Assembly: GCA_008933995.1 (NCBI GenBank)
Contig: WARS01002890.1
Span: forward strand, 1 to 64,000
Reading direction: 5' to 3'
From: Datnioides undecimradiatus
Taxonomy: Eukaryota; Chordata; Actinopteri; Lobotiformes; Datnioididae
DNA: 64,000 bases
A program made the translations under genes and the position numbers. Under the pieces are notes generated by a model that did not search any database, was not told the DNA's origin, and was given only the letters and a program-made list of their open reading frames with translations. This document shows positions 5,556 to 52,371 of the stretch, piece after piece. Numbering within the stretch: position 1 is the stretch's first letter; each line of letters starts with the position of its first letter.

Positions 5556-5796
5556 ATGGAGGAAGACAGAGACTTGCAGAAGTAAGTACACAAAATAATA
5601 TTTGTTATAATATTACATATATTTTTAATTTTTCATTGATCAAGGTTAATTTGCAGCTATGGCCACAAACTTTTATTTAATCAGAAATAATGTGGAAAAT
5701 ATTTATATCTTATTTTCTAATTTTTTAAATCTTTTTTTAGTTGTATATTAGAGTAAATAAGGTAACTTTCTTACGCACTTATTTAAACAGAAAATG

Positions 5797-5827
<31 letters not shown>

Positions 5828-8800
5828 ATTTATTGTTTCTGTCTTCATTTAGGAGGCCGTGGGACACCTGTCGAGAGGTCCCGACCATCGAAGATGAACA
5901 GACGCCATGGAAGATGATCACACTATTAAAGATAATCTCTCTGTGTGCCGTGGCTGTGATTGTGTTTGGATTGGCGCTGTGTAGCAAGGTGCGCTCTTAT
6001 TCTTTTACATAAACTATATTATACAACATGACTACAGAAAGCTTTAAATCCCCTAGAGTAGAGTGTTTAGAATAGAATACAATATAGTGTTTGAACTCTT
6101 GTCCACATATCACGGTATCAACTGGATGATTAAATAATGATCTTTTTCACTTTTCCCAGACTTCCTTTCTCCTTCTCATCACCCTGTCAAATGAAGGCAC
6201 AAAAACCCTCCCAGACGACCAGAAACCTGTCGCTCTCCTGTGCATCGGCTGCTCCCTCATCGCTTCCAGCGTGCTGCTGCTTCTAAAAAGCATCTGGAAG
6301 GCATGTTACAAAACCTCAAAACCGCCAAAAAAAACAACTATTGCCCTGGTGAGACAGGAGAAGACATTTCCTAATTTAATCTCAGTTTTGAATCTCAGCC
6401 TAAAACTGTCCGTTCTTGTTGTTTATGTGGTTTAATTCATGTCTGCTTTGTCTTCAGGTTCTGTTCTTTGAGTTCATGGTGTCTCTGGGTGCAGCGATTC
6501 TCACAATCGTTGCGATGCCACACCTGGATATCGTGACCAACGTGACGATACTGAACAGCGTAGCTGTCTTCTCTGCGCTCCTACAGCTGGTCACTCAGTG
6601 CACTGCCAAAGAAAGGAACCGCTTCCTGGTGCCGTCCATCACCGCTTTCCTCCTCATTCTGCTCGGTTACGGCCTGTTCCTCGCCCTTTACGTTATGAAG
6701 GATCCCAGCGATACCAAGATGGCCATCTGGGTGGGTCTGGCTGTTGGTGGGTCCTTCCTGGTGTCTCTGAACTGGTGGGAGAGCTACTTCAGACTGATCA
6801 GTGAGAACAGCAGCTCCATCTTCCTCAAAGATCTGTGTAAAGACTTGAGAAGAAGCCAGAACATGTTGCACATCATCTCCAGCCTACTCAGGATCGCCGT
6901 GACCGCCTGTGTCCTCGGAGCATACGTCCCTCTTGCCAAAATGGACTGGGACATCGTGAGGTCCATCCCGAGGCGTGAGACAAGAATCATAGCCATCACC
7001 ATTGGCGTCCAGCTGATCTCCTCTGCACTGTGCCACTGGTTTGCGCTCGCAGCCTGCAAGATGCACGCCCTGCGGCGATGCTTCATCCTGCCTTTGTACC
7101 TGGCCTCTCTGGCTGTCGTGGCTCTGTTCATCGTCCCCGTTATCGTCTACTATCAGGACTACAGAATAAGCCTCAACGGGACTGAAAGCACCAACTTCTC
7201 AAGCTACTGCAGTCTAGTTGTTGAAGGGAGAAACCACAGCTTGAACGGCAGCGTGTTCCCACATCTGGTGTTAGATGTTACGCACAGCCTGTGCTTCCTG
7301 GACATGTCCAAGATAATGGACATCGGCATCCTGACAGGTAAAAAACTAGAGCTGGTTTCAGTTTTCTGGTTTTTCATAGTAGGGCCATGAAAACAGTGTA
7401 ATTTGTTTGTATGATCGGGTTTCCACACCCCTTTCAACATACCTGCCAGCTCCAGCGGTTAGCAGACAAAAGTCTGAAAGTCTAAAATCATTAAAAACTT
7501 CATGATACAGTAGAGATGCAGGCACTTTGCATGACCCCAAGTTTGATTTGTCATCAAATGTGTTTTAAATCTTCCCTCAGGCTCTGCAGTGTCATGGTGG
7601 CTTGGTCTCGTCTTGGCCACTCTCCATCTGTGGTATCTCAACATTTATCGTATCCAGAGGACCCAAGACCTGTTCATCAGGAGGCTGTATGAAGGTGCCT
7701 TTATCGAGCAGTCTCTGCTCCTCAACACACGATTCAACATCCAGACCAAGGATAAGATGAAGAAGTAAGTGTGTAGGAGCAGATCTTTCATTTGGAATCA
7801 TCTAAAATTAGGTCTTGTTTGGACTCGAACTTGAAAACTGCTTCTCAAAGTTGCTTGCCTCGTCAAGTTTCAGGCCATTTGAAACGGTGAAGCTGTACCT
7901 GTGTGCGACCATGTGGCACGAGACCTACGATGAAATGATGAACATCATAATATCAATCTTCAGGTGAGTTATGCAAACTCTTTATTTTTTTTGGGCAGGA
8001 AATTTTGTGACGTATCACCTCGCCATCCTTTAAACTCTCCGGAGCGCTGAACATTTGAGTTTTGCAAGAAATAGTTGCTTAATTTGAGTCAGAGAAGATT
8101 GAGAAAAGGGAGTTTTGGTCAGTTTTGTTTGATGCTCTCACAGGATTTTCTTTTCCAAAGAGTTTATGTCCTCACGTTCCTCTTTATGTGCCTCTAAATG
8201 CTGCAGACTGGACAAGTACCGACCAAAGAATGATCCAAAGTACAACGATTTCACCTTCGAAGCCCATATCTACTTTGATGATGCATTCAAACATGAGGAG
8301 GGCCAAGGGTGTCACCTCAACAAATACGCAAAGAACCTTGTGGAAATCCTCACAGAGGTTTATGAGTAAGATCACCTCTAGTGTTAAAAATTAAAATCCA
8401 TTTCTAAAATTGATCAGTGGCAGGAAAACCATTTTTTAGGAAGGTCACATTACTATAAGAACATTCTCCCCTTATGTCTCATCAGCATCTTCACGAATAT
8501 CGACGAGAATATCTTCAAAAAGCAGCAGCAGCAGGTGCCCAATCAGAAGGTCATCAAGACTCCGTACGGAGGTCGGCTTGTGGTCACAATGCCTCACGGG
8601 AATGTCATCATGGTTCACTTCAAGGACAAGGAACTCATTCGACACAAGAAGAGATGGTCTCAGGTGGGACAACAGTGACTTTCTGATGAGCTTTCGCAGC
8701 TTAATGTTTAGAAATGTGTTTTGATTTCTTGAAAAATGTTTTATTAATTGTTATTTCTTATTTTTTTAGGTCATGTATCTTTATTACCTGCTGGGTTGGA

Positions 8801-11800
8801 AGCTCATGACCAAATACTATTCTCGCTGGCAGAAGGGAGGGGATGAGAAGGAGCTGAAAGCAGAGGTCCAGGTGAGATGAGGAAAACAACTTTGGTGGAT
8901 CATCTCTTGAAGTTTGAACCCACATTCTTGGTATTTCTAAATAAATCCTGGATGTAAAGCATATGCAAATGCGTCTTTGCCTCCAGAGAGAGAAGCACAA
9001 CACCTACCTCCTGGCTTTAGATGGGGACACAGACTTCCAGCCGGCTGCTGTGATGTTGCTCATCGACCGTCTGAAGATGTATCCACGTGTCGGGGCAGCG
9101 TGCGGCAGGATTCATCCCACTGGATCAGGTTGGCACGTTGTCCATGTGATGAAATAAATGAACAAATGAACAAAAAACTCTAAGCTCACACGATGTTTGT
9201 GGTTAGGTTTACAGTACCGCTGTGTTTCCCCAACAGGTCCTGCAGTGTGGTTTCAGAAGTTTGAGTACGCTGTCAGTCACTGGCTGCAGAAGACAGCAGA
9301 GCATGTGTTCGGTTGCGTGCTGTGCAGCCCTGGATGCTTCAGTCTGTTCAGAGCAGAGGCGCTGATGGATGACAACGTCATGAAGAGATACTCCACAAAG
9401 TCAATAGAGGCGAGCCATTACATCCAATATGACCAAGGTGAGCGATGCTGTTTCATAAGACTTTCTGTCTCTCTCAGTCTTACCAGTGGTTTCCACATTC
9501 GGCCTCTCCGCCCTCGTCTTATTTCCACCTCTGATCCCGACAGGTGAGGACCGCTGGCTGTGTACTCTGCTGCTGAAACAGGGATGGAGGGTGGAGTACA
9601 ACGCAGCTGCTGATGCTTACACCAACGCACCCGAGGACTTCAAAGAGCTCTACAACCAGGTGAGTTCAGCAGCTGAGAGCTCAGAACCTTCTCGCTAATA
9701 CTACCACAACGGTTGACGAGTTGTCCTTGAGCCAAATTCATGCTAACGACTCTTTGCCTTCGTCAGCGGCGGCGATGGGGACCATCCACAATGGCCAATG
9801 TGGTCGATCTACTGGGCGCCACCAGCGTGATTTCCAAGAGAAACCCATCCATGTCCAAACTGTTCATGTTCTACCAGCTGTTTGCCATCACCTCAGCCAT
9901 CCTGGCCCCCGCCACCATCTGCCTTCTGGTTGCAGGTTGGTGTTATAATCTCTGCACATGTAGACAGTTATAAGCATTTGAGTGCAACTGGACGATTGAT
10001 TATGTTTTATTTAAAATGTGTAATACTCATTTCTTTCCTTGTGCTTCCTCTATTCTGGCCTGCAGGTAGCTTGGCCTTCATCTTTGACATAAATGCCAGT
10101 TTTACCCTCGTTCTGGCCGTGATACCTCCCACCATCTACCTGATTCTTTGCTTCAAACTCAAGCCGGACACTCAAATCACAATCGCAGCAGTCTTGAGCG
10201 TCATATATGCATTCCTCATGTTGGTGGTGATCATGTCCATTATCGGTATGTTATATTCAAACATGTGTATGTTTATGCATCTGCTTTGTTTGCAAATATT
10301 TCCAGAAAAGCCACTTGAAGCTGCTGTAATCAGAAAAAAAAATATATATATTTATCTTTCCTCAGGCGCAATGGTGAAGGACAAAACCATACTGACACCC
10401 AGCAGCATTTTTGTCATCTCCATGGCCATCATCTACATTGTCACCGCGATAATGCATCCGCAGGAAATCCAGCTGGTGTTTCACGGCTTCCTCTACATAA
10501 TCTGCGTTCCCAGCGCCTACCTCCTGCTCACAATTTACTCCATGGTCAACATGAACAACGTGTCCTGGGGCACTCGGGAGTCAAAACCTGCCGCTGGAGC
10601 CGTCAAGCCTGAAGTCGCCGCTCCGCAAACAACAGCCCAGAAAGGTAGATACTAGCATACGTGTGCAACACTAAACCAATATCGTGATTTGTGCCAGTTG
10701 AGCTGAAGCTGATCTCCACCCTTGCAGCCAAAAGCACCTTCCAAAAGTACTTCTCATGGGTCAAATGCTGTAAGAAATCCAGCCAGCGATCTGTAGAGAG
10801 GCAAGTCAACGTCAACCAGGAGAACCTGATCGCACAGCCCACACGGCCTGAACCCACGCCCCTAAACACTATTGTGGAGGATGCAGGGATCACAGAGGAA
10901 GAACTGAGGTACGTTTTGAAGCGTGCGATGTGATATAATGCTGATGTGATATAAGACTGAAGGTGGTCTAATACTTGGTCTAACTGTTTTTCAGGCAAAT
11001 GCAACCTGTTGTTGACCTTCCTGCTCAATGTAAGTCCAAACAATTTAGCAAAGATCAGCATTTTGTCACTTTTATTTTTACAGATTATTCCAACACACTT
11101 GCAAATGTGGTGTTATCTAACATGCTCCTGCCCTGCTGTTTTCTACAGGTTGGGTCACACAACTGCAGAGCATGAACACTGACATGCAACTGCAGGAGGA
11201 TTCCCTCAACAAGGTGCGTGTATCTCGTTTTATCATCCTAACATTTTAATCTGAGTTTATTATTGGTCCGATTTATTAAAATGATACCCTACACCTTCCC
11301 AATGCAGGTGGCAACTGACCACAGCGTGACTTTGAGGCATTTGCCGTAGTCACTAATTGCTGTTGTCAAAACATGCAAATTTACAGAAAAGGTTTCTGCT
11401 TGTCTCTGCAGGAGGAGGAAGACTTCTGGATCGAGCTTCTGGATAAGTACCTGCAGCCTTTGGTGGACGACAAAGAGAAACAGAAGAAGGTAGCCACTGA
11501 CCTGCGAGAGCTAAGAAACAAGGCAAGTGTAGGGAGCTCACCTACGGTTTATTTCTAACAGGAAACCAGTTCAGGTTAAATAAATCATATCTTTCTCCTC
11601 ACGCACAGATAAACTTTGCCTTCTTCATCTTGAACGCCCTGTGGCTTGTGGCGGCATTTACCCTCCAGCTCTTCGATGCCTCCTTCTCCATCGAGCTGCC
11701 CATGGTCAACTTTGAGCTCCAGCGCACCGGAGAGGTCAAAATCGATCCCATCTCCTTCATGTTCATTCTGGGATTTGCTACATCTGTCGTGATCCAGTTC

Positions 11801-12728
11801 TTCGGCATGCTGTACCACAGGTGACCATTATTTTTCTTTTGCTGAGCAGAAATGTGGTTTTGTTCTTTATCAATAAAATCTAACACTGTGTTTTTCTTTG
11901 TTCGTCCAGAATCTACACGCTGATACATTACGTGGCCTTCCTGGACACAGAGCCCAGAGAGCAAAAACCTGAAAAAGAAGATTATTACGTTGAAGGCAAA
12001 AAGGTATTTACAGTTACTGTTGTAACTGCCTCTGCTCCTGCTTGTGGCTAGTTTCTCTGTTTTACAACTTGGGCTACACAAGCACAGCATGGTATTTCTT
12101 TACCAGAGGGAATCCGAGCACATCAGCCAACCATTTGGCTGCAGTGGTAGCTTGCACACTCAAAACATCTTCTAGCTCAAAACAAGAATCTTATTTTATT
12201 TTCCCTCTAAGCGGTGAAGAAGCCACAGAGTAGAGTTGCTTAAGGGTTAGCATAACTTCATTTTGTGCACCGTGTGTTGACATTCATAAGCGCGCGCTGG
12301 ATCAAACAGCATTGTGTGCAGACAACAACGCGAGCAGGATCTGCCTCACGCTAATTATTCAGGCTTGTGCTACGCAAAATGTTAAAGACAGAAGAGAACA
12401 CCAAATTGCCCTGGGAATACTTTTCAATAATTACTACAACCAGCGGGAAATGAATGTACTGACATGAGTCCAACCACACCTGCCTCCTACTGTGGTTAGA
12501 CAAGAAAAAATAGTTTAGTCACCTGCCATAGGTGTTCCAGGTGTGGTGGTATTTTTATGTGTACTGATGTTTCTTGTTTCTGTTGCCTCTCAGATGGAGA
12601 CCGTGTCTCACGTGTCTCAAGCCGAATCGAGCTCCTCCTCCCTGGAGGAGTCTGAGAGCGAGGACAGCGATGATGACTTCTCCTTGACCTTGTACCAAAG
12701 AAGTCACGATGGAGGCACTATGGTGTAA
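5556..12728 (+). CDS. chs1: chitin synthase, copy A (22 coding exons, 1287 aa)
   Basis: Polytopic membrane glycosyltransferase (GT2) that polymerises UDP-GlcNAc into chitin. Coding exons: 5556-5581, 5853-5988, 6160-6348, 6458-7337, 7581-7764, 7874-7963, 8207-8365, 8486-8663, 8770-8871, 8987-9128, 9237-9437, 9544-9659, 9767-9935, 10066-10245, 10366-10644, 10728-10908, 10995-11029, 11149-11213, 11412-11522, 11609-11820, 11910-12003, 12594-12728; they sum to 3864 nt in one frame. Roughly nine to ten amino-terminal membrane segments (exons 2-5) precede a cytosolic catalytic region. That region has CATMWHET (residues 482-489), DGDTDF (660-665), EDRW (764-767) and QRRRW (801-805). A carboxy-terminal membrane cluster follows, with SWGTRE (984-989), a variable linker, then EEEDFW and two last membrane segments. 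A Ser/Asp/Glu-rich tail ends in TMV. The start follows a TATA box. The intron after exon 19 uses a GC donor. The chs1 symbol follows the fish convention; I cannot say which copy is the orthologue of zebrafish chs1. Confidence 0.95.
5796..5821. repeat. (TGTC)n microsatellite in intron 1
   Basis: Six tandem TGTC units within intron 1 of chitin synthase A. Confidence 0.9.
6443..7220 (+). other. near-identical block shared with copy B (gene conversion tract)
   Basis: Within coding exon 4 of copy A, this block matches 33459-34236 of copy B with about nine substitutions counted by eye over roughly 763 exon bases. The match begins in the last bases of intron 3 (the shared tgctttgtcttcag acceptor). 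It ends abruptly at the codons after CSLVV, where the last ~117 exon bases show about twenty differences. Exons 3 and 5 on either side are clearly diverged. The block encodes seven or so membrane segments and part of a lumenal loop with Asn-X-Ser/Thr sites. Confidence 0.85.
11523..11524 (+). other. GC splice donor of intron 19, copy A
   Basis: Exon 19 ends in AAG and is followed by GCAAGT, the consensus of the minor GC-AG intron class. The partner acceptor is the AG at 11607-11608. The frame continues correctly into INFAFF. Copy B has a regular GT donor (AGG then GTGACT) at the homologous junction. Confidence 0.8.
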
Positions 12729-16139: not shown

Positions 16140-17353
16140 CACTACTCACAATAAGTTAGGGATATTGTGAGAGACTCAGTGGATGTCATACATACGGTGT
16201 TTGTTTCACTTCAGAGATTTTTGGGATAGGGAGGCAATTGTATTGGGGTGATAGACACAGAACTACTGGCAGAGTTCGTGACAGACCCAGGAGTGGAGCC
16301 CCACGAGTGACAGACCGCAACGATGACCAGTACCTAAGGACCTATGCACTCAAACATCGTTATGCAACTGCCACACAGCTGCAGGCCCGTTTACGAGATG
16401 TGAGGGGTACTAGGGTTTCCAGACAAACCATTCGCAACCGACTCCACCGCTTTGGCTTGAATGCCAGACGACCGTTGCAGGTGACTCCACTGACACCAAG
16501 ACACCGCCGTGAACGTTTGCAGTGGGCTCAAGACCGTGTGACCTGGACAATGCAGCAGTGGTCTACCGTCCTGTTCGCTGATGAGTGTCGGGTCACCTTG
16601 CACAGAAATGATGGTCGTCAGCGTTGCTGGAGAAGGCGAGGTGAGCGATATGCCGAGGTCAACATGGTCCCCAGGGTTCGCTTTGGTGGAGGAGGTGCAA
16701 CAGTCTGGGCAGGCATCACCAGTCAGCGCAAAACAGATTTGGTTATTGTAGATGGCTCAGTCACTGCACGTTCTTACCTCAGAGACATCACAGAACCCAT
16801 CATCATCCCCCAATTCCACCAGCACACCCCCAACTTTCTGTTCATGGATGATAATGCTCCACCACATCGTGCCAGAATTGTCACAGCTCGACTTCAGGAA
16901 GTCGGAGTGCCTCATATGGTATGGCCAGCAATGTCCCCTGACCTGAACCCCATAGAGCACGTCTGGGACCAGCTGAAGCAGAGACTGGATGATCGTACCC
17001 CACCCCCACGTGACCTGGCAGAACTGCGTGTAGCACTTGTGGAAGAGTGGAACGCATTGCCTCAGAACAACATCATGAGGCTAGTGAGGAGCACGAGACG
17101 TCACTGTCAAGCTGTCATTGCGGCAAATGGTGGAAACACCCGCTACTGACGTTGTCAGTTTTTGTTATTTGGGGCTATCCTTGTTATTGTCTAAATTTTT
17201 GGGGTAATAAATATTAAACTAATGAAAATGGTGTTTCTTCTCATTCATTATTAGTAGTATCAAAGGGAACTTTTACTTATTTCATTCAAATTCAGACCAA
17301 ATAGGAAAAGCACTCATGTAAATAACAATATCCCTAACTTATTGTGAGTAGTG
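16140..17353 (+). mobile_element. Tc1/mariner DNA transposon (1214 bp) with perfect 29-bp TIRs
   Basis: The terminal inverted repeats at 16140-16168 and 17325-17353 are exact reverse complements. They are flanked by TA at 16138-16139 and 17354-17355, the target duplication expected of Tc1/mariner. The interior carries a transposase frame on the + strand with an intact DD34E catalytic core. The distance from the left TIR to the conserved [10 protein letters not shown] segment is too short to hold the usual first helix-turn-helix, so an internal deletion or truncation near the left end is likely. Confidence 0.93.
16238..17149 (+). pseudogene. Tc1-family transposase, amino end missing
   Basis: Continuous frame of about 303 codons without internal stops. 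It shows the linker [10 protein letters not shown], a second helix-turn-helix-like region ([13 protein letters not shown]) and the catalytic residues: D in LFADECRV, D in FMDDNAPPH and E in NPIEHVWD. Exactly 34 residues separate the last two, which is the Tc1 DD34E spacing. The frame begins at a TTG rather than an ATG, and I see no in-frame ATG upstream within the element. The first DNA-binding helix-turn-helix typical of Tc1 transposases is absent. The core looks recent (no stops), but the protein as encoded probably cannot bind the ends by itself. Confidence 0.8.
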
Positions 17354-22838: not shown

Positions 22839-23319
22839 TGTCAGGGTTTTTGAGTTGAGTTTCTTGTTTTGAGTTGAATTTCTTGTTTATTTCCTGTTTT
22901 ATTTTGAAAAGTTGTTTCCCTGGTGTGTTTCTGTCTACTTGTTTCCTGACCCTGATCAGTCCATTGATTTCACCTGTGTCTCGTTTTGCTGCCCTCCCCT
23001 GTCTATTTAAGTTATACCATTGCCTTTGTTCTCTGTCGCTGCATTATTAAGTTAGACCTCATGTTTTTGCCATGCTTGTATCCATGATTCCACGAGCCTG
23101 CTCATAGAGATCTTGGTTTTCTAGTTCTTGCATTTTTTTTGGTTTTTGGAATTATACTTACCACGCCTTGTTTCAGACTGACTTCCTGGATTTTGACCCT
23201 GCCTGCCTTGACCATCCGTAAGCCTAAGCCCCTTGAAAATAAACAGTTAAAAGATCTTCTGCATCCCTGTCCCTGCCTGCGTCTGGGTCCTGCTCTCACC
23301 CCATACCCAAGTCCTGACA
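22839..23319 (+). mobile_element. solo LTR, copy 1 (481 bp)
   Basis: Begins TGTCAGG and ends CCTGACA, the TG...CA termini of a long terminal repeat. It is flanked on both sides by the 5-bp direct repeat GATTA (22834-22838 and 23320-23324). Inside are a TATA-like tatttaag at 23004 and an AATAAA at 23238-23243, as expected for an LTR with promoter and poly(A) signal. A clearly homologous copy lies at 51887-52346. No internal retroelement genes are adjacent, so it is a solo LTR. The Ty3/gypsy class is the most likely, given the length and 5-bp duplication, but it is not proven. Confidence 0.8.
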
Positions 23320-25199
23320 GATTAATGAAGAAAACAGGCGAACGCTCAGTTACTGTTTTTTTACTTTTCTCTGGAGTAGGTATGAATGTGTAAATGCACA
23401 TGTGTGAGTTGGGAGGTGAGGACGTGGTATTTTTGAATTGTCCTTTTATTATGGCATTTATTCATTCATCTGGATCAAAGCAACTAAAGCTGCACTTGGA
23501 CTAAAGATCTGAGACTCAGGTTCCTGACTGGGAACCAGAAAGTTGAATCTGTCTAAAGTCCACGTTTAGTGACCTTTTAGTACGTTGTCATTTGGAATTG
23601 AAGAAAATAATCTCAGCTCTTGTGTTTTTTCCATTAAAATATATGCTGCTGGATGAAACTGTAGGGAAAGCAATTAAAGCTCAATTAGTGTAATCTTTGG
23701 CTGAATACAAGTGAATCACATGAGGCGTCCTGTCGGGTGCATTGTTCTCTGCTTTATTGGGTTCGTCAAGGCCTGCAGCCTGGAGAGGCATTTATAAAGC
23801 CAAAATGGCGTGAAGAAGAGCAGAGATGACATGATTTCCTGTCTGCTCTGCTCTGAATTCACAGCCACTCAGAGTTACAATGATGCTGTATTTCTGTATT
23901 TTCAAAATGCAAATTACTCGAATTTTAATTAAATACATTTTCTCACGCTGGGATTTTGGATTTTATTATGATTTGCTGAGCAAGTATTTGTGTTTGTAAC
24001 GAAACATCTGCACACACAGTACAACAGCAGCGTCAAAGTCCCCGGGACGGTCAAAACTGAAACTTCTGTGTTATGTTGCTAAGATTCGATGGGTCCAACC
24101 GTCCCCGAGTAACTTCCTGCTCAGAGTGCAGCTCTGCCTGCCATGTTATTTATGAGGAATAACTCAAATTAAGGATCATATACGTTCAAAAAGCATGTTT
24201 ACCTCATAAAAAGTAAAAACTGCATAAACAGCAGTTTAAATTATGATTTAAAAATGTTATTGTTTAATTGTGCCCACAGACCCCAGTTTGGGCAGCCCTG
24301 CCCTACATAGTATGTGTGCACATAGCAGAGATATGACAGACAAAATACAGTTGCATACAAGCTGTCACAGCTGCTGAGCAGCAGTGACAGCTACACAAAC
24401 ACACCTGATGGGCCCTCGGGTTGTGAGTTTAAGCCCACAGAGCTTCTGAAGTTTTGTTCTCCGCCTTGTCACAACAAATCAAAAGCATGTCATTATACAG
24501 ATGCTGCGTGCCACCGTGAGCACATCGTTAATACGTTTGCAGCTACCGTCAGCTGAACCGAATCTAGCTGCAGAACACGTGTGTGTCACAGCAGATCCTA
24601 AGATTTATTAGTGTGACCTGCTTCCTGCAGAGCTCCCAGGTCGACGGTTTACAGTTCAGAGAAGAGAAAACTGTTTGTTCTGATTGAGGCTAATTATTTC
24701 TACATATCATTCATAAATCATGTCACAGTCTGAACTTTACAGTGAATAAATACGTAAATGTTTGCAAACTGATGCGGCTCAGGCAGATGATGAGGAGGCA
24801 AATTGAAAGGCAGTAGGTCTGTAATGGATTTAAACACATTATCTATAACTTGTCTCCTGTAAAAGTGCATTTTTCAGCATTCAAGTACAAACAGGTCCTG
24901 AAAACCTCCTCCTGCTAGGTCAGTGCACAAAGGTAAAGGCTCACAGGCGGCGACAGGCCTCCAGCTGCTCATCACATATCTTGTTTTCAAATGCGCTCAC
25001 GCAGCTCGTCACGCTTCACTTCATAAGATTTTGGCGTGTTTTGCAAACACTTTCATTCCAGGCAGGGAGCAGCCAACTGTTTTCTTTCAGGCCAACTTGC
25101 TCCTGGTTTTAACTCTTTATTTCACATTAACTGTTTTATTTGTTTTCTCTGGTTTCTTTATCCCATAAACGATAAACTTATTCTGACTCTGTCGTTGCT
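23320..25199. other. intergenic spacer
   Basis: No gene recognised. It includes one member (about 24472-24570) of a diverged repeat pair; the other lies at about 26180-26285. Confidence 0.4.
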
Positions 25200-29560: not shown

Positions 29561-29563
29561 CAT
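28751..29563 (-). pseudogene. L2 LINE reverse-transcriptase fragment with frameshift
   Basis: About 270 codons with [10 protein letters not shown], the YVDD polymerase box (most relatives have YADD) and the QNAAARVL and HWLPV segments. The frame is lost near 28770. Beyond it the expected continuation ([18 protein letters not shown]) is found in another frame, down to a stop around 28615, so a single-base indel split the end. The upstream part (endonuclease and first RT blocks) is missing through 5' truncation. The element is dead. Confidence 0.85.
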
Positions 29564-31774: not shown

Positions 31775-34700
31775 ATGGATGAAGACAGGAGCTTACCCAA
31801 GTGAGTACAAACGTTTATTACTGAAAAAATGATGCATCTGAAAGATTTAATGCAACTCTTAATATTTAATACTCATCATTTTATTAGCTAATACTAGTCT
31901 GTGGGTTCCCTGTAAAGTTTGATCATTGGTGATGTTTGTGAAGGGAAAATATTTCAAACTTATGAGCAATTTAACCTTATTTATTGCCAATATTTTACTT
32001 AAAGGAGCATTTTAAAGTGGTTCATTAACGCTCAATAAGTGGATTGAAGCATTTTTATAAATGTTTCCTGGCATGAAAAGAACTTTTGAAAGATTAGATT
32101 TTTGATTTTGAAGGTTGAATGAAGGAGATCATTGGAAGAAAGTTGACATAAAATAATGAAAACCAAACTGCTGATATGTCAGTTATAATGGCTCAGGTTT
32201 TAGATTATTATTGTTGTTATTATTGTTGTTGTTGTTGTTGTTGCTACTATTATTATTATTATTGTTGTTGTTACTATTATTATTATTATTATTAGTATTG
32301 TTGTTACTACTATTATTATTATTGTTGTTGTTGTTACTATTATTATTATTATTATTGTTAATACTACTAGTAATAATAATAATAATAATAAAATAATGAC
32401 AAATATATTGACTTCCTGTATGTTGCTGACTGTTTGACTGATTTGTTTAAGTAGTGTATTTAAGCACCGAGCTAACATTGGGAATTCAATCATGCATGTT
32501 TCAAGACGCAGAGATGGACAAAGACAAATGTTCAATTATAATACACATTTTTTTACAAGTGTATTTTTCATGTTTACACAAGATTTTGTACATTTTATAT
32601 ATTTTTTATACATTTCTTTGTTTATTTTTCACCTTTTTTTTTGTTGTGATTCTTACTTCCTAAATTTAAACACGTCTTTAGTTTTATCTTTTACCATCAA
32701 TCTGCGCTGAATTCTCTGTGTCACGTTTTCAATTACTAATCTTGCTACTTACCCAACAAGTTGTATTGCTAGAAAGATGAAACCGGTTGTCTTCACATAC
32801 AAGCTTCCTCACAAACAAGCTTGGCTTCCTGCCGACCTAATTACAACCTGTAAATATGACTTTTGATGCCTTCAAACAGGAGGCCGTGGGACACCTGCAG
32901 AGAGGTCCCCACCATTAACGACGAACAGACGCCATGGAAAATGATCAAACTACTAAAGGTCATCGCTCTCGGCCTGGTCGCTGTGATTGTGTTCGGGTTG
33001 GCTCTGTGTAGCAAGGTTTGTTTCTGTACTTGTGCACATTTATAAGAACATGTTTACTTAAGGAAGTTAACATAAAGGTTAGTTATTTCATCTTAAACAT
33101 TTAAGGGATATTAAAGAAAAGTTGATTCTCTGACTGACTTTCTTTTCTTTCTGTCTCTCCTCGACTTGTTTTACGCTCCAGACTTCTTTCCTCCTCCTCA
33201 TCACCTTGTCCAACGAAGGCACCAAGACCATCTCAGCCGAGCAGAAGCCTGTTGCTCTGCTGTGCGTCGGCTGCTCCCTCATCGCATCCAGTGTGCTTCT
33301 CTTGCAAAAGAGCATCTGGAAGGCGTGTTACAAGTCCTCAAAGATGCCGGCGAGAAAAACTGTGGCTTTGGTGAGAAACCGGACAAGATCTATGAAACTG
33401 TTGTCAATGTAATTTTCTAAACCAGGACACAAGAACATCAATGTTCAATGTTCTCCTTCTGCTTTGTCTTCAGGTTCTGTTCTTTGAGTTCATGGTGTCT
33501 CTGGGTGCAGCGAGTCTCACAATCGTTGCGATGCCACACCTGGATATCGTGACCAATGTGACGATACTGAACGGCGTAGCTGTCTTCTCTGCGCTCCTAC
33601 AGCTGGTCACTCAGTGCACTGCCAAAGAAAGGAACCGCTTCCTGGTGCCGTCCATCACCGCTTTCCTCCTCATTCTGCTCGGTTACGGCCTGTTCCTCGC
33701 CCTTTACATTATGAAGGATCCCGGTGATACCAAGATGGCCATCTGGGTGGGTCTGGCTGTTGGTGGGTCCTTCCTGGTGTCTCTGAACTGGTGGGAGAGC
33801 TACTTCAGACTGATCAGTGAGAACAGCAGCTCCATCTTCCTCAAAGATCTGTGTAAAGACTTGAGAAGAAGCCAGAACATGTTGCACATCTTCTCCAGCC
33901 TACTCAGGATCGCCGTGACAGCCTGTGTCCTCGGAGCATACGTCCCTCTTGCCAAAATGGACTGGGACATCGTGAGGTCCATCCCGAGGCGTGAGACAAG
34001 AATCATAGCCATCACCATTGGTGTCCAGCTGATCTCCTCTGCACTGTGCCACTGGTTTGCGCTCGCAGCCTGCAAGATGCACGCCCTGCGGCGATGCTTC
34101 ATCCTGCCTTTGTACCTGGCCTCTCTGGCTGTCGTGGCTCTGTTCATCGTCCCCGTTATCGTCTACTATCAGGACTACAGAATAAGCCTCAACGGGACTG
34201 AAAGCACCAACTTCTCAAGCTACTGCAGTCTAGTTGTCTCTGAAAGAGATCGCAGCTTGAACGGCAGCGTGTTCCCACATTTGGTTTTGGATGTTACTCA
34301 CACTCTGTGCAACCTGGACATGTCCAAGATAACAGACATCGGCATCCTGACAGGTAAAAACATGACAGGTACATTTTGACAGCATACATGAAGAAGAAAC
34401 TAACACTTGGGCAGGGGATACAGGTCAATTAGGCCACTAAGTCCTTTTTAGTGAGTCGTAAAATCACTGTGGAGAGCCCACAGGTCAATGATTTCAGAAT
34501 CATTGAATCATTGATCATCTGAAATGTTAAGGTGGAATTTTCCTTTCATCCTTCTCAGGCTCAGCAGTGTCCTGGTGGCTCGGGCTTATCTTGGCCACTG
34601 TCCACCTCTGGCGCCTCAGTCTGTATCGCATTCAGAGGACTCAGGACCTGTTCATCAGGAGGCTGTACGAAGGGGGATTTCTCGAGCAGTCGCTGCTTCT

Positions 34701-37700
34701 AAACGCTCGATTTGACGTCCAGATCACAAAGAGGAAGCAGTAAGTGTGTGTTTTGCTTGGGTGGTTGGGAATACCCAGTGAAGTCAATCAAGTCAGTCAA
34801 GCTTGGACTTTAGTTGTTAGGGTTTGATTGGTTTACCTTAGACGGGGGGTAAAGATAACAAATGTCAATATCAAAAAAATAATCTAAATCTAAATCATCT
34901 TGTCATTTTCAGATTTAAACCACTGGAGCCAGCAAAAGTGTTCCTTTGCGCGACGATGTGGCACGAAACCTACGACGAGATGATGAAGATAATCATTTCA
35001 ATATTCCGGTAAGTTTCACATAGTTTTGTAATTTCCCCACCCCAACAAATAATTTTAGTGAATGGTTTAGTTATCGCTCTGACATGCTCGTTGGTAGGCG
35101 TGGATTTCAGTCTGAAACCAGCCAGTGCATAGCAATACAAGAGCTAACCTGTCGCTGCTGGTCTTCAGCATCATTACAATCCCAGTGGTTTTGATCACTG
35201 TGGTCACCTGTACAGCAGCAACTGTACAGGAAGGGTGAGTTTGGTTTTGTAGTTTAATCTAGGAATAAGGTAGGTACTAAAAGCATGACTGTCCAGAGAA
35301 TTTAGCTCAACCAGCTGGGATAGTTTCACACAAAATCCTTAAAATTCATTGAAAACATATAGGTTTTTGTGGTTTTATGCAAAAGACAGTGTCTTTATTG
35401 AAGAGTCAAAACCTCCAATTTAATCATGGTAGACATCCCTTTGGATTATAACCATCAGCTTCATCACAACACCTTATTTGATTCTGGTGTTTCCCCAGAT
35501 TGGACAAGTACAGACCGAAGAAGGAAGGAGAAACAAATGATGTGAATTTTGAGGGACACATCTACTTTGACGACGCCTTCCAAGATGTTCCCGGAAGTCG
35601 AGGGCGCCACGTCAACGAATATGCAGAGATGCTTGTGGAAATCATCAGAGAAGTCTACGGGTGAGATCTGTGATTGGTTTATAGGAAAATTACAAAATGA
35701 AACACGAGTAGCTGTTAGAGTCTGCGAATGATGAGCTCTTGCAATGAAGCTTAAGTATCTCTCTCCCTCTTTCTGTCATCAGTATCTTCATGAACATGGA
35801 TAAAGGCCTGTTCAAAAAGCAGCAGCAGATCCCTGATCAGAAGATCATCAGGACGCCGTATGGTGGACGCGTGGTGATCGAAATGCCTTGCGGAAACTCT
35901 CTGACGATCCACTTCAAGGACAAGCAGCTCATCCGTCATAAGAAGAGATGGTCTCAGGTACAGTTCAAGTTAAGTGTAGTCAGTGAGACTTGAAGTTATT
36001 CTTTTATCAATCCATAAACAACTCAATGAATTAGAGGATTGAGAGGTGAAAATGTGTTGTTTAATGGCCGTGTTTGATTGAAACTTTGTCTGACTTTAGG
36101 GGACTGTGTTTGCTGAATCATATTTGATGTTTTCTAGGTCATGTACTTGTACTATCTGCTGGGCTGGAAGGTCACAACCAAGTATTACAGAAGGTGGAAG
36201 AAAGGAGAAGATGAGGCTCAGCTGAAAAGAGAGTTAAAGGTGAGACGATAAAATGGGAAAAACACTAGACACTTCTACATGAAAGGTAGCTGAATGTAAA
36301 ACAATAACGAAACTGCGCTGTTCCTGCAGAAAGAGAAGCACAACACCTACCTCCTGGCTTTGGATGGAGACACAGACTTCCAACCAGCTGCTGTGATGTT
36401 GCTCGTCGACCGTCTGAAACTGTATCCTCATGTCGGGGCAGCGTGCGGCAGGATTCACCCAACTGGTTCAGGTTGGTCATACTAAAACAGGAAACAAGAC
36501 ATAAGTCAAGTTTAATGTGAGGAACGTTAATGTCTGGTTCAAACACAAAGCTACGATTTGGACAATGTCCTTCAAATGAACCACAGATACGCAGACGACA
36601 CTGTGATTTCGATGAAAAGTCAAAAACTACCTGATTATGGGTTGTTGATGTGTGCAGTGCAACTGTCACAAATGGTTCTCTGTAACAAACCATCCGGTAT
36701 GTCAGGTTACTTCCAGCTAATTTACTTAAACTTGGCAGTTGCCCCAAAGCTCAAGACAATCATTATGCATCAGATACACAGAAGAATAAACAGCAACGGG
36801 TGGTTTTGACAACACAGCTGTGCTCTTCCCTGGCAGGTCCCCTGGTGTGGTACCAGAAGTTTGAATACGCGGTGGGCCACTGGCTTCACAAGGCAGCAGA
36901 GCATGTGTTTGGCTGCGTGCTGTGCAGCCCCGGATGCTTCAGCCTGTTCAGGGCGGCGGCGCTGATGGATGACAACGTGATGAAGAAATACACCATCAAG
37001 GCCTCAAGGGCTAAACACCACATCCAGTACGACCAAGGTGGGTTAAAAGCCTTAAAAACCACAGGAACAGTCGGTCAGAGTGAATAATGAGAACATGAGA
37101 ACATGTTCCTCGGCTGGATGTGCTGCAGAAGCTAAGGTTAGGGAACTGGAGAACACAGAAAGATCTACTGCTCACAAACTATGGATAAGTCTAAAAAGTC
37201 TGCTCACAACCACAGAAATCACCTAATTAAAACTGAAACTAGGTCATTCACTCAGCTGCAAAATGAAATAAAAGCTTATACCAGTTAGCTACAGGTAACA
37301 AACAACCATTGTCTTAACCTAAAACTGAAATATTGGCTTTCTGTGCATCAGATAAGTCACCAGATGTTTATGTGAATGGTACATGGAATAAGTCGTACTG
37401 CTGCTTTACTGCATATTGAGCTGCACTTTCACTGCCTGAGGGTGTGTTATATCTCAATCCTGTGTAGGCAAAGTAGATTGCGAAACAGCTGAAAACTGCC
37501 AGTTGCCCTACAGCAACTTGCAACCATCAGTTAACTCTCTGCAGCGTGGCTCAAACCACAAACCTGCTGCTTGCAGGCGCTCGAACGCTGGCTCAAAAAG
37601 GCGAGAAAGATGCATTTTCAAGGAAAATATCGAGCATACTCACATGAACACAGTTCTGTTTAGATTGTGCACATGCAGGATCACGTGAGGCCCAAACCAC

Positions 37701-40700
37701 TTGCTGAAATCTTGCTAAGTTTTGATTTTCATTTTCTCTCATGATCCTCCATCTGCCAATCCCTGCAGGTGAGGATCGCTGGCTGTGCACTCTGCTGCTC
37801 AAGCAGGGGTGGAGAGTGGAGTACAACGCGGCCTCGGATGCCTACACCAACGCCCCTGAGGAATTCAAAGAGTTTTACAACCAGGTGGGACACTTTTTGC
37901 ACGTTATCATGCTAGCTGTGCTAACTCTGGACCTGCCACTGTGGCTGCACGGCTCCTCGTTGATCAGACCATGTAATGGGTGCTGGAAAATCCTTTGGAC
38001 CAGACCCAGTTTTTGGTTAATTGGCTGCTATTTCTGGTTTCTGGAGTTTAACTCTATTGTTCACAGCCATCATCAATAAGTGGTTAATTACAATATGAAG
38101 AACTCAAAGAATAAATGTCATAACCAAAATTGTTTTGGTATTATCTCGATAATTAAGGCATTGTAATCATGACTTTAAAAATATCCTCTCATATAACTTC
38201 CTCCCGTGAGGATGTGGTAACCCAGTTAAACAAGTTAGCACTGTAGCTTTGTCTTGACTGAAAGAAAACTCAGGTCATCACGTGTTCGCTGCTGTTTATG
38301 CAAAAAAGACCAAAATATTGACATTTGGTGCAAACTTATGTTGGTTTCTGTACAATCCAGAGTTAGTACAAATACATTTTCAGTCAGAAATGATGTGATC
38401 AGACTTTCAGACCAGGTTTTTAAATACATTAAACATTTTACAAACTCGGTTCATTAAAACTAAGCCACTTAGCCTCCATGATGCAGATTGCTGCAGAAAC
38501 ACAGAAATACTCTGACATGATGTCAAACATTTTAATATTCTTACTCATAATTATTCCAGCGTCGTCGATGGGGACCGTCCACCATGGCCAACATTGTGGA
38601 CTTGCTGGGCTCTGGCACCCTGATTACCAAGAGGAACCCGTCCATGTCCAGGCCCTACATGTTCTACCATCTCTTCAGTTTGGCCTCGTCCATACTGGCG
38701 CCGTCCACCGTCATCCTTATGATAGCAGGTCAGGCTTCATGAAATTAAGCTTTTGTTGTTTTATTGTGTTGCATTTCAGAGTTGTTCCCAAACAGGTGCT
38801 TAGAGAGTCACATCAAGCAGTGCATGCTTTAGGATTATTACATTTCATTACAAAACTAATAAACCTTTTGATTTGCATCTAAATGGATGCTCTCATTTTA
38901 AGTTCGGTGTTGGGACATTCTTGTTTTATTGCTCAGGTGATGAAGACGTCAATACTATTCAACCAAATGAGGATGTGGTTTTACAAAATTAGGTCACAGA
39001 AACTTAACTATGGGTTTGTAAAACCAGTTCTTTTGCATTTTTCCTGTCCACACTCCAGGCAGTTTCACCGTGTTGCTTGACATTCAGCCAAATGCAGCTC
39101 TGGTCTTGGCCGTGATACCTCCTACTATCTTCCTCGGCATCAGCTTCAGGATCAAGTCAGACCGTCAGATCCTTGGTGCGGCGATCCTGAGCATCCTGTA
39201 CGCCTTCCTCATGATGATCGCGGCACTTACCATAATAAGTATGTCACATAAAAACTTGACAAAGCCTGTTTATACTGAAAGGTTTCTGGCATCAAAGTCT
39301 CATTTCCCATTTATTTATCATCCATCAGGCAACATGGTGAAGGACAAAACCATCATGGCTCCCAGCAGCCTCTTTATCATTGCCCTTGCTGGCTTTTACT
39401 TGCTTACTGCACTCTTGCATCCCCAGGAGGTAAGCCTGGTGTGCTACGGCATGCTCTACATACTCTGCATCCCCAGTGCCTACCTGCTGCTAGCTATTTA
39501 CTCCATGGTCAACATGAACAACGTGTCCTGGGGCACCAGGGAGACAGCACCTGCTCCCGGAGCCACCGGAGCTGCTGGTGCTGCAGGAGCTGCAGGAGCT
39601 GCAGGAGCTGCAGGAGCTGCCCAACCTGCACCAGCAGCTCCACAAACAGAAGTCCAGAAAGGTAGATGCAAGCTGAAACTTGAAAAATAACTAGGATAGA
39701 TTAATGTGCATGTATGCATTTTGCAGTTATTCAAACATTTTACATGATGAGCTACACTGGCCTGGACTTGGCAGGTTTGCCCAGTTTGATGCATTGGATC
39801 CTTTTCCATTTTATCATTTAAGCTAAAACTGATCTTTACTCTTGCAGTCAAAAGCGCGTTCACACGGTTCTTCACACGTTCCAAGTGCTGTACAAAACTG
39901 TGCCGGAAAGGCAGCGAAGAGGAGCTCATTTACAGCCGGGAGAACCTGACCATGTTGACAGCGGAGCCTGAACCCCAACCTGAGCCCCAACCTGAATATG
40001 AACCTCTACCCCAAAACAGCATCGTGGAGGATGTGAGGGTTCCTGTGGACACCAGGTAAGATCTGAAGGTGTAGCAGTGACTGGAGGTTGTAGTTGATGT
40101 TGGCTCATATTCAGAAAAACGAAACTTCAAGAGTGTGAAGCAGGTGGTTCAGTCGGCAACTGAATGATGAATAAACTGTTTTTATCTTGGTTTCTTATTT
40201 TAATTCAGGGAACCGGCGCCTGCTTACACCTGCCCGAACCAGTGTAAGTCCCAATATGAGTGAATTTTACAAAAACATCATCTTCAGACGATTGTGATTT
40301 TTCATGTTGTGTGATAATTTCCTTTTGTCCAGGCTGGGTCACGCAGCTGCAGAGTTTATCCGATGACATGCGCCTGCGGGAGGACACCATCGACCAGGTG
40401 CAGATTCCGCTCTCCGCCGCTCAGCTTGAATGTTCTCCTCTGAGCCGTTTGCATCATAAACATAATTGATTTGAGTAAAGAGACGCAGGAAACAAGCGCC
40501 CTTGAGTCTTTCTCTTAGATCTGACGGCACTTTGTCGCTATCCAGCAGCCACATTATCGAGAAAATAGGTGCACTTGTGCAAAAGTTTAAATATTTAATA
40601 TTTTTATTCATATTAATATTTTTGTTTACATCTTTTTTTCTCATGCAAAGATATTTATTCTCAACAATCCTTCAGATTGCTCCATATTGAAATATAGCTG

Positions 40701-42310
40701 CATTTGTCTGCAGGATGAGGAGCAGTTCTTCAGAGAGCTGACAGCCAAATACCTGGAGCCTCTGCCCGAAAACAAGAAGAAGCAGAAGAAAATGGCTGAC
40801 AAACTCAGGCAGCTGAGGAACAGGGTGACTGTGGCTCAGAGCGGAGCATGTTTCTGTGGTGGCGTTGGTGTTTTTAAGGCTGTCAAATAAAAAACAAAGC
40901 TATGCAACAATAAAATAAATCCTTTCCTTCGCCCTCGTGCACAGATCAGCTTTGTCTACTTCATCTGCAACGCCTTCTGGCTTGTGATGACCTTCGTGCT
41001 CCAGCTCAAAGGGAGTTCCATCTTCATCCAGGTGCCAAAGGTGGACATCAACCTGCAGTTCACCGGGCAGTACATGTACATCGACCCTCTGGGCTTCATG
41101 TTCATTATCTCCTTCGCCCTGCTGGTCTTCATCCAGTTCATAGCCATGTTGTACCACAGGTAACCAATCACCAGACAGATCAGATCAGAGATGTTCCTGA
41201 CATCAGAAGATCAGTTTGTTCACTTCCTTGTTTTCTGGTTTATCACAGAATATGCACCCTGATCCATTTCGTGGCCTTCATGGATACAGAGTTCATATCC
41301 GACAAGCAGAGAGAGCAAGAGCAGGTACAAACAACTGTTGTAAAGAGCTGTCAGTACAACCAGTACTGCTGCAGATACAACTGTATGTGGCACTTTAGCA
41401 GTTCTGCTGTGCTGCTGCTGATATTTCTACTACTCACTAGCAATTCAATGATTAAAAGATCACAAATAGACGGACCACGGTCCAGATCTGGACCAGACGC
41501 CGTAAATATCCACAGTTTAAAGTCATTTCTCACATTTAAGACATGTCAGGAAACTCTCAGAACATCTGCATGCACTGTAAATCACAAAGCACAGAGCATC
41601 TTTTAAACGAACATGCACTTCAATCTGAAATGAGGGCGCAGATAGTTCAATATTTGATGCAAATGGAGCCTTTTCACTTTTTATTTTCAATCTAAATTAT
41701 AGATATTCACGGCGTCCTTGTTGGAAAATTAACAAATCTCCTACTGGTCACTAGTCCTGCTATTCATTACAATAAACACCTGTTCACCCGAGAGTGAGGA
41801 TTTTACAGTATTCTCAATAATTAATAAAAAACAGATTGGACCGAATCCCCCGCCCTGACTCCTGCTGCTGATAATGACAGTGATAAATCAAAGGGACACA
41901 GCTCAGCTGGAATTCAGCGCTAATAGACGCGTCCTGAACACATTGTTCAGCCTCCTCTGCGTCTCCGGAATTTGCAGGTTATTTTCAGATTTTAGCTGAG
42001 CTCGTGTCTTGTCCGTTGCAACGGGGCTCATTAACGTGCCAGCTGCAGAAACGTACTACTCAAGAAAATGTAGACGCTGTGCTGATTGCAGCTTAACGTC
42101 ACACCGTGCCCTGCTAATGCTACGGTTCGAGTGGAAAGTTTGCTGGCATATCATTAATACGGCCTCGGCGTGGGTGTGGCGGCGCAGAGATGACAGTGTA
42201 CTCATCATCTGAATTCTTTGTAGGTCAAAGATGATGAGGACAATGACAGCGACGCCTTGACGTTTCCAAGTCTGCTCAACACAAGCAACGAGCGAGGAAG
42301 TCTGGTGTAA
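31775..42310 (+). CDS. chs1: chitin synthase, copy B (22 coding exons, 1294 aa)
   Basis: Tandem paralogue of the gene at 5556-12728, with the same exon number and identical phase at every junction. Coding exons: 31775-31800, 32880-33015, 33182-33370, 33474-34353, 34559-34739, 34913-35008, 35499-35660, 35783-35957, 36138-36239, 36330-36471, 36837-37037, 37769-37884, 38560-38728, 39059-39238, 39329-39661, 39848-40055, 40209-40243, 40333-40397, 40714-40824, 40945-41159, 41249-41324, 42224-42310 (3885 nt). CATMWHET, DGDTDF (661-666), EDRW (765-768), QRRRW (802-806) and SWGTRE are all present, so catalysis should be intact. It differs from A by an Ala-Ala-Gly expansion in exon 15, a Glu-Pro-Gln repeat in exon 16, a shorter acidic tail ending SLV, and no TATA box near the ATG. 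All introns appear GT-AG. The symbol is shared with copy A because I cannot assign a/b names. Confidence 0.95.
32203..32391. repeat. (ATT/GTT)n trinucleotide repeat in intron 1 of copy B
   Basis: About 190 bp of mixed TTA/TTG triplets with a few ACT interruptions. Poly-leucine or poly-isoleucine open frames here are artefacts. Confidence 0.95.
33459..34236 (+). other. near-identical block shared with copy A (gene conversion tract)
   Basis: Partner of 6443-7220. By-eye differences inside the exon: att/agt, aac/aat, agc/ggc, gtt/att, agc/ggt (two), atc/ttc, acc/aca and ggc/ggt. Confidence 0.85.
35169..35234 (+). other. candidate 66-nt cassette exon in intron 6 of copy B
   Basis: Preceded by a pyrimidine-containing acceptor (gctgctggtcttcag) and followed by a strong donor (gg then gtgagt). 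Its length is 22 codons, and its phase fits exons 6 and 7 exactly. Inclusion would insert a hydrophobic stretch (R-IITIPVVLITVVTCTAAT...) before LDKYRPK, in a region of the protein that is normally cytosolic. Intron 6 of copy A has no matching exon. It could be a chance match. Confidence 0.35.
39562..39624 (+). repeat. coding 9-bp minisatellite (Ala-Ala-Gly)n in exon 15 of copy B
   Basis: Tandem gctgcagga units encode repeated AAG tripeptides just after SWGTRE. They account for the 54 extra bases of exon 15 relative to copy A. The segment is predicted to be a flexible cytosolic linker. Confidence 0.9.
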
Positions 42311-51886: not shown

Positions 51887-52346
51887 TGTCAGGGTTTTGA
51901 GTTGAGTTCTTCTTCTTTTGTTGTTTCCTGTTTTATTTTGAAAAGTGTTCCCCTTGTGTGTCTCTGTCTACTTCCTGTCCTTGATTAGTCCATTGATCTC
52001 AGCTGTGTCTCGTTTTGCTGCCCTCCCCTGTCTGTTTAAGTTGTGCCATTGCCTTTGTTCTGTGTCGGTTCATTTCCTCTGTTAGCGTCCATGTCTCTAC
52101 CTTGATTCCATGTGCTTGATCACTGAGATTTTGGATTTTTGTTCTTTTGGTTCGTTGACTATTTTTGGATTTATGATTACCATGTTATGTTTGGACTGAC
52201 TCCCTGGATTTCGACCCTGCCTGCCTTGACCATCCGTAAGCCTGGAGCCCTGTCAGCATCCATTAAATAAACTGTTTAAAGACCTTCTGTCCCTTGTCCT
52301 TGCCTGCATCTGGGTCCTGCTCTCACCTTGTAACCAAGCCCTGTCA
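51887..52346 (+). mobile_element. solo LTR, copy 2 (460 bp)
   Basis: Homologous throughout to 22839-23319, in the same orientation. It starts TGTCAGG and ends CCTGTCA (one mismatch to the ideal end). The 5-bp target duplication GCATC flanks it at 51882-51886 and 52347-52351. An internal AATAAA lies at 52266-52271. No retroelement genes are nearby. The different target duplication proves an independent insertion. Confidence 0.8.
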
Positions 52347-52371
52347 GCATCGATTACATTCTAATCTGAGG

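What the first reader, a model, noticed from the sequence alone, without database searches (positions are those of the whole stretch)
6443..7220. Sharp gene-conversion tract in exon 4 of the two chitin synthases
About 763 exon bases differ at only about nine sites from the paralogue at 33459-34236, while adjacent exons 3 and 5 and the last ~117 bases of the same exon are clearly diverged. The left edge sits in the final bases of intron 3. Such a bounded tract points to interlocus conversion of just the amino-terminal membrane domain.
Basis: partly seen in the sequence, partly recalled or inferred. Interest (0 to 1): 0.8.

Follow-up and report, generated by a model that had tools for sequence, protein, structure and literature searches.

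The report
Fish chitin synthases repeatedly share exon
In this fish, two neighbouring chitin synthase genes that differ widely elsewhere carry one stretch of exon 4 that is almost identical, likely because DNA was copied from one gene to the other; in 18 of 26 other fish genera compared, the matching stretch of protein also groups by genus instead of by gene copy.

Summary
Tandem chitin synthase genes A (5556-12728) and B (31775-42310), both 22 exons with intact frames, share a 780-bp tract (A 6442-7221, B 33458-34237) with 9 differences. Ks is 0.022 inside it and about 1 outside. The left edge lies 16 bases inside intron 3, so the exchange was at DNA level. A near-identical (allelic) contig of the same assembly carries the same tract and edges; only 6 differences are fixed. 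Constraint and misassembly are very unlikely.

In 27 fish genera with both copies (window included), A and B form separate clades outside exon 4 (0 of 27 pairs are sisters). In the tract 19 of 27 pairs are sisters (17 strongly supported), and one A clade is rejected (AU p 8.5e-55). So the tract is the latest of repeated, separate homogenisations centred on one exon. Exon 4 (880 bp) is over 2.5 times longer than any other exon, and introns 2-8 do not align between A and B. I infer a self-sustaining island of homology; a hotspot or selection is not excluded. Closest precedent: mammalian TLR1/TLR6. Eight of 27 pairs do not group this way. Species, direction and expression are unknown.

The parts
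5556..12728 (+). chitin synthase gene A, 22 exons, 1287 aa, intact
   Evidence: exon model in frame; Pfam Chitin_synth_2 E 4.2e-32
31775..42310 (+). chitin synthase gene B, 22 exons, 1294 aa, intact
   Evidence: exon model in frame; homologues listed
6458..7337 (+). exon 4 of A (880 bp)
33474..34353 (+). exon 4 of B (880 bp)
6442..7221 (+). conversion tract in A (16 bp of intron 3 plus 764 bp of exon 4; 9 differences from B)
   Evidence: same on the second haplotype
33458..34237 (+). conversion tract in B
   Evidence: same on the second haplotype
7222..7337 (+). diverged tail of exon 4 of A (19 differences in 116 bp, Ks 0.41), possibly left by an older exchange
   Evidence: 27 of 31 degenerate same-amino-acid codons identical against 318 of 516 in exons 5-22, Fisher p 0.004
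34238..34353 (+). diverged tail of exon 4 of B
6349..6457 (+). intron 3 of A, not alignable to intron 3 of B except the last 16 bases
7338..7580 (+). intron 4 of A, not alignable to intron 4 of B

Best explanation
The 780-bp near-identical tract in exon 4 of the tandem chitin synthases A and B was likely made by non-crossover interlocus gene conversion, the latest of an inferred 17 to 19 separate homogenisations of this exon among 27 fish genera. Shown here: the tract, its sharp edges, the 16 intron bases it includes, its presence on both of two near-identical contigs, and the switch from grouping by paralogue to grouping by genus at exon 4. Inferred: a break in one copy is repaired from the other copy 27 kb away, and the repair stays inside exon 4 because that exon is the only long uninterrupted block of A-B homology (880 bp; the next longest exon is 279 bp in A and 333 bp in B, and introns 2-8 do not align). 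Each conversion resets exon 4 to near-identity and so keeps it a substrate for the next, while the shorter exons have diverged past the point where exchange can start. The conversion step is close to certain; I put the homology-island reason for its confinement at about 0.5.
For: Ks 0.022 against 0.97. Segment score beyond all 20,000 shuffles. Intron bases inside the tract: run of 16, against at most 7 in the other 20 introns. Second contig C197, 98.6-99.8% identical over about 50 kb, has the same tract and edges; 6 fixed A/B differences in 764 bp. Tract tree: 19 of 27 pairs sisters, 17 of them at bootstrap >= 95 and SH-aLRT >= 80; rest tree: A group 99, B group 100, 0 of 27 pairs sisters. Three control blocks of 253 columns: 0 of 27 each. 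AU tests: one A clade on the tract rejected, p 8.5e-55; Window A+B as sisters on the rest rejected, p 4.4e-7. Excess identity peaks in exon 4 (+0.131). 23 of 25 significant shared segments (of 29 pairs tested) are centred in exon 4. Exon 4 is the longest exon and introns 2-8 do not align.
Against: 8 of 27 pairs are not sisters in the tract tree, and Ophioblennius shows no excess at all (163 of 251). The tract tree's bootstrap had not settled. Other species are seen only as predicted proteins, so silent sites and introns were not compared there. 4 of the 27 pairs, 3 of the 19 sister pairs, are of two congeneric species. For the island idea: exon length is not significantly correlated with the signal over exons 2-21 (Spearman 0.36, p 0.12), while distance from exon 4 is (-0.50, p 0.02; -0.42, p 0.07 without exon 4); labrids only partly behave as escaped; some other-species signal reaches exons 2, 3 and 5. 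No GC3 rise in the tract (p 0.11 and 0.82).
Confidence: 0.9

Rival explanations
1. Conversion, but placed by a sequence-directed initiation hotspot inside exon 4, not by the length of homology.
For: The signal falls off with distance from exon 4 on both sides (Spearman -0.50, p 0.02).
Against: Exon 4 is not a CpG island (o/e about 0.6, as the other exons) and has no GC3 rise. No motif was sought.
Confidence: 0.2
2. Conversion occurs along the gene but selection keeps only what falls in exon 4: exchange in the catalytic exons is harmful, or a common membrane module is favoured.
For: A and B keep separate clades for exons 5-15 across 27 genera, as if their differences mattered; exon 4 stays common in most genera.
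Against: Both genes persist where exon 4 has diverged (Ophioblennius, Xyrichtys, Halichoeres), so sameness is not required. Post-conversion differences in the tract are ordinary: 5 replacement and 4 silent.
Confidence: 0.25
3. Strong purifying or silent-site constraint on exon 4.
For: Both copies are nearly identical, silent sites included.
Against: Between species exon 4 is no more conserved than the rest (A-A 0.766), and only 38% of tract residues match the catfish Hemibagrus against 62% of the rest. In Ophioblennius A and B differ at 88 of 251 tract residues.
Confidence: 0.01
4. Assembly artefact.
For: Tandem copies can be mis-joined; no reads were available.
Against: 9 real differences remain, two contigs agree on tract and edges and differ by allelic singletons, and 18 other genera show the pattern.
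Confidence: 0.01
5. Transfer through a spliced cDNA.
For: The tract lies almost wholly in one exon; a reverse transcriptase fragment lies between the genes.
Against: 16 intron bases are inside the tract.
Confidence: 0.03

Closest known systems
Mammalian TLR1/TLR6 gene conversion (PMC2077338; listing and nine passages)
   Same: Tandem paralogues; one internal part more alike within a species than between species, by conversion that occurred independently in several lineages with nearly the same borders; flanking parts diverge.
   Different: There the whole reading frame is on one exon, so the borders lie inside the exon; here the genes have 22 exons and the signal is centred on the one long exon between introns that no longer align. 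More lineages are sampled here, but as proteins.
Concerted evolution of BMP8A/B, DDX19A/B and TUBG1/2 in mammals (PMC2720389; listing and passages)
   Same: Old neighbouring paralogues with part of the gene homogenised by ongoing conversion over long times.
   Different: By that paper's design the concerted regions span at least two exons and the intron between, and a rise of GC was used as evidence; here one exon, and no GC3 rise.
Atlantic salmon chitin synthase copies in the MHC class IB region (PMC1971071; passages)
   Same: Several chitin synthase copies near each other in a fish (three, about 45 kb apart).
   Different: Described there as an insertion with two further duplications; the only mention of gene conversion in that paper concerns TAP2.
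Fish chitin synthase subclades I and II (PMC10234404; passages)
   Same: A and B both carry the CATMWHxT motif that the paper gives for subclade II (sequence).
   Different: The paper's main text holds neither 'tandem' nor 'gene conversion'.

Membership tests
Interlocus gene conversion | Bounded tract of high identity, silent sites included, between paralogues that are diverged on both sides | tested here: met
Interlocus gene conversion | Both copies kept with their own flanks (no crossover product) | tested here: met
   exons 1-3 and 5-22 of both genes are diverged and in frame on the window, and the second contig keeps the same order
Interlocus gene conversion | DNA-level exchange, intron bases included | tested here: met
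   16-base intron run against at most 7 elsewhere
Interlocus gene conversion | Direction of transfer (donor and recipient) | tested here: inconclusive
   the nearest listed relative, Dicentrarchus, is itself homogenised
Recurrent domain-limited conversion (as TLR1/TLR6) | Grouping by species inside and by paralogue outside the part, in several lineages | tested here: met
   19 of 27 against 0 of 27 pairs
Recurrent domain-limited conversion (as TLR1/TLR6) | Similar borders in different lineages | tested here: inconclusive
   of 25 significant protein segments, 9 left ends at aa 116-118 (exon 3/4 border) and 12 right ends at aa 402-430 (exon 4/5 border at 411), the others wider or narrower; protein ends are coarse
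Biased (GC) gene conversion | Raised GC3 in the converted part | tested here: not met
   184 of 255 against 673 of 1008 in A (p 0.11), 181 of 255 against 707 of 1008 in B (p 0.82)
Chitin synthase | Chitin synthase catalytic domain | tested here: met
   A: PF03142 at residues 654-868, E 4.2e-32; B not scanned, but its listed homologues are named chitin synthase
Chitin synthase | Makes chitin | not testable with these tools
   needs an enzyme assay

The most novel reading that the evidence does not exclude
Exon 4 is a shared, exchangeable membrane cassette: across these fishes the two chitin synthases stay two enzymes with diverged catalytic exons but one common amino-terminal module, kept common by recurrent conversion so that both track the same changing membrane partner in each lineage.
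Probability: 0.15. Interest if true: 0.8.

Novelty: new member of a known kind. Interest (0 to 1): 0.6.

Why it matters
It offers a replicated natural experiment: the same two genes and the same exon, with an inferred 17 to 19 separate homogenisations and with unconverted genera as controls. That makes the old question of what confines gene conversion (length of homology, initiation sites or selection) testable in one gene pair. It also warns that gene trees, orthology calls or short-read expression counts that rest on the exon 4 part of fish chitin synthases can be wrong or ambiguous.

Tried and rejected
Constraint: rejected, because exon 4 is no more conserved between species than the rest. 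Misassembly: judged very unlikely, because a second contig has the same tract and edges. A further donor copy: exon 4 DNA matches only the two loci on two contigs, and none of 62 protein matches in the window lies outside A and B. An older tract in exon 10 (Ks 0.32): not significant, 3058 of 20,000 shuffles reach it. CpG island or GC3 signature: absent. Exon length as sole predictor: not significant over exons 2-21. A structure model of a relative (P0097, 1195 aa, 56 sequences) was poor (mean pLDDT 56, pTM 0.39), so no fold search was run and nothing rests on it. Solved structures matched 7 distinct sequences, all within residues 656-991 of P0003, so no template covers exon 4. Labrids as a clean case of escape: only partly borne out (tract A-A 0.792, B-B 0.836, A-B same species 0.805, A-B other species 0.768). 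A-type pairs as independent replicates: Cyprinodon (two species) and Anableps show higher identity in exon 4 than in exons 3 and 5, but Anableps is not significant (68 of 1000 shuffles), Gambusia, Xiphophorus and Pholidichthys show no clear peak, and Oreochromis shows the reverse. Direction of the transfer: not resolvable here.

Literature searches for a prior report: chitin synthase with teleost and gene conversion (1 paper), with fish, gene duplication and vertebrate (45 papers, 20 listed), with fish, chitin and Actinopterygii (4 papers), with gene conversion (32 papers, 15 listed), with concerted evolution (9 papers). None of the listed titles and abstract starts describes this; unlisted papers were not seen. 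Searches on exon-restricted, opsin and general concerted evolution served for comparison.

Full report
What is there. The window holds two chitin synthase genes in direct orientation, A at 5556-12728 and B at 31775-42310, each with 22 exons and an intact frame (1287 and 1294 aa). A matches Pfam Chitin_synth_2. The named homologues listed for both are fish, nearly all spiny-rayed (group name recalled). The window is the start of contig C198 of an unnamed assembly of 581 Mb in 497 contigs; I did not identify the species.

The tract. Exon 4 (880 bp) has 28 differences between A and B: 9 in the first 764 bases and 19 in the last 116. Ks is 0.022 in the tract (4 silent changes in 184.5 sites) and 0.97 in the rest of the aligned coding sequence; Ka is 0.009 and 0.23. 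At four-fold degenerate sites 3 of 127 differ in the tract and 113 of 275 elsewhere. A maximal-segment test on 876 degenerate same-amino-acid codons gives a score of 237; 20,000 shuffles reach at most 95. With the tract removed the same test finds nothing significant (3058 of 20,000 reach the best score).

Edges. On the left the identity runs 16 bases into intron 3 and then stops; in the other 20 introns the run from the splice site is at most 7 bases. Introns 2 to 8, tested without their splice-site ends, do not align between A and B better than shuffles (z -2.3 to 1.0). So the maximal tract is A 6442-7221 and B 33458-34237, and the exchange was between genomic copies, not through a spliced cDNA. 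On the right the tract ends inside exon 4. The 116-base tail has Ks 0.41, and 27 of 31 degenerate same-amino-acid codons are identical, against 318 of 516 in exons 5-22 (Fisher p 0.004), as if an older exchange had once reached further; exons 2-3 show no such excess (51 of 86, p 0.72).

Two contigs. Exon 4 DNA has four matches in the assembly: A and B on C198, and A and B on C197. Fifty kb of C197 align to the window in the same order in pieces of 98.6 to 99.8% identity, so I take C197 as the other haplotype; a recent duplication of the whole region is not formally excluded. It has the same tract and the same edges. Across the four copies, 6 of the 764 exonic positions are fixed differences between A and B, and 6 more are singletons: 2 differences between the A alleles and 4 between the B alleles. 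The A-B distance (9) is about three times the mean allelic distance (3), so the last homogenisation is young on the scale of allele ages. An absolute date would need a rate that I do not have.

Other species. 133 proteins were collected (the best 120 of 481 and of 382 hits were listed). They were aligned and called A or B by their parts outside exon 4. 27 genera, window included, have both; for each genus the best-covered pair was taken, in 23 from one species and in 4 (Channa, Micropterus, Perca, Sebastes) from two congeners. Tract identity within the pair is 0.94 or more in 11 of 27 and exceeds that of the rest in 26 of 27; that of the rest is at most 0.77. On 697 columns outside exon 4, A rows form one group (SH-aLRT 99) and B rows another (100), and 0 of 27 pairs are sisters. 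On the 253 tract columns 19 of 27 pairs are sisters in the careful tree, 17 with bootstrap at least 95 and SH-aLRT at least 80, and 21 of 27 in a quick one. Three control blocks of 253 columns give 0 of 27 each, and exons 2-3 give 2 of 20 (Paralichthys, Scophthalmus). Holding all A rows together on the tract costs 1281 log-likelihood units (AU p 8.5e-55). Holding Window A and B together on the rest is rejected too (p 4.4e-7). Each sister pair excludes all other sampled genera, so 17 to 19 separate homogenisations are inferred. The tract tree's bootstrap had not settled.

Shape of the signal. Excess A-B identity within pairs over that between genera is +0.131 in exon 4, +0.046 in exon 3, +0.019 in exon 5, +0.018 in exon 2, +0.026 in exon 22 (11 pairs only), and at most 0.013 in the others. 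Exon 4 itself is not more conserved between species (A-A 0.766, B-B 0.773). Segment tests on 29 pairs (the 27 plus A-type pairs of Anableps and Cyprinodon) give 25 significant segments, 23 centred in exon 4; left ends fall at aa 116-118 in 9 of 25 and right ends at 402-430 in 12 of 25. These protein segments are coarse: the window's own runs from 42 to 420 under the same scoring, wider than its DNA tract.

Results against a universal process. 8 of 27 pairs are not sisters in the careful tree; Ophioblennius has 163 of 251 identical tract residues, no more than in the rest. Labrids are mixed. Among A-type duplicate pairs, Cyprinodon (two species) and Anableps show higher identity in exon 4 than in exons 3 and 5, but Anableps fails the segment test; Gambusia, Xiphophorus and Pholidichthys show no clear peak, and Oreochromis the reverse.

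How it most likely works. The conversion itself is as well supported as sequence comparison allows. Why it is confined to exon 4 is inferred. Exon 4 is by far the longest exon (880 bp against at most 279 in A and 333 in B) and stands between introns without A-B homology, so it is the only long continuous block on which repair between the two copies, 27 kb apart, could act. Each event restores near-identity and keeps the block usable. Exon length alone does not explain the small differences among exons 2-21 (Spearman 0.36, p 0.12), while distance from exon 4 does somewhat (-0.50, p 0.02; without exon 4 -0.42, p 0.07), which would also fit a hotspot in exon 4. Selection that keeps a common membrane module, or removes exchange in the catalytic exons, remains possible. 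No GC3 rise or CpG island was seen. Hydropathy gives five clusters of peaks inside exon 4 of A, so the converted part is predicted to be a membrane module.

Known relatives. TLR1/TLR6 in mammals show the same pattern of repeated, similarly bordered conversion of one part of a tandem pair (PMC2077338, passages read), and other pairs show long-lasting partial concerted evolution (PMC2720389, passages read). The fish chitin synthase papers found (PMC10234404, PMC1971071; passages read) do not describe conversion between chitin synthase copies in what I saw. The case is a new member of a known kind, with unusually many inferred replicates and a signal centred on one long exon.

Noticed in passing
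window 11523-11608: Intron 19 of A begins with GC, that of B with GT.
   Followed up: no
window 39329-39661: Exon 15 of B is 54 bp longer than that of A and encodes a short Gly-Ala repeat that A lacks.
   Followed up: no
window 16238-17149 (+): Open frame of 303 aa with Tc3-type transposase and DDE domains between the two genes.
   Followed up: partly
window 28751-29563 (-): Open frame of 270 aa with a partial reverse transcriptase domain between the two genes.
   Followed up: partly
window 22880-23320 and 51913-52347: A pair of 78%-identical non-coding-looking repeats of about 440 bp in direct orientation, outside both genes.
   Followed up: no
window 46211-47134 (-): Rhodopsin-family receptor frame about 4 kb behind B; the Knipowitschia protein P0120 joins a chitin synthase and a PF00001 domain, which may reflect the same neighbours fused by gene prediction.
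   Followed up: partly
window 63027-63371 (+): Weak immunoglobulin-like match, below the family's cut-off.
   Followed up: no
P0004, P0094 and P0112 (Dicentrarchus labrax): Two A-type proteins of sea bass: P0094 matches the B protein P0112 at 253 of 253 tract residues, P0004 at 239 of 253. A converted allele, a third copy or a gene-model mix-up could explain it.
   Followed up: no
P0038 and P0045 (Oreochromis niloticus): The two A-type tilapia copies show the reverse pattern: exons 2 and 3 at 0.98 and 0.97, exon 4 at 0.87 and exon 5 at 0.85.
   Followed up: no
window 8987-9128 / 36330-36471: Exon 10 has the lowest Ks outside exon 4 (0.32), but not significantly so.
   Followed up: yes
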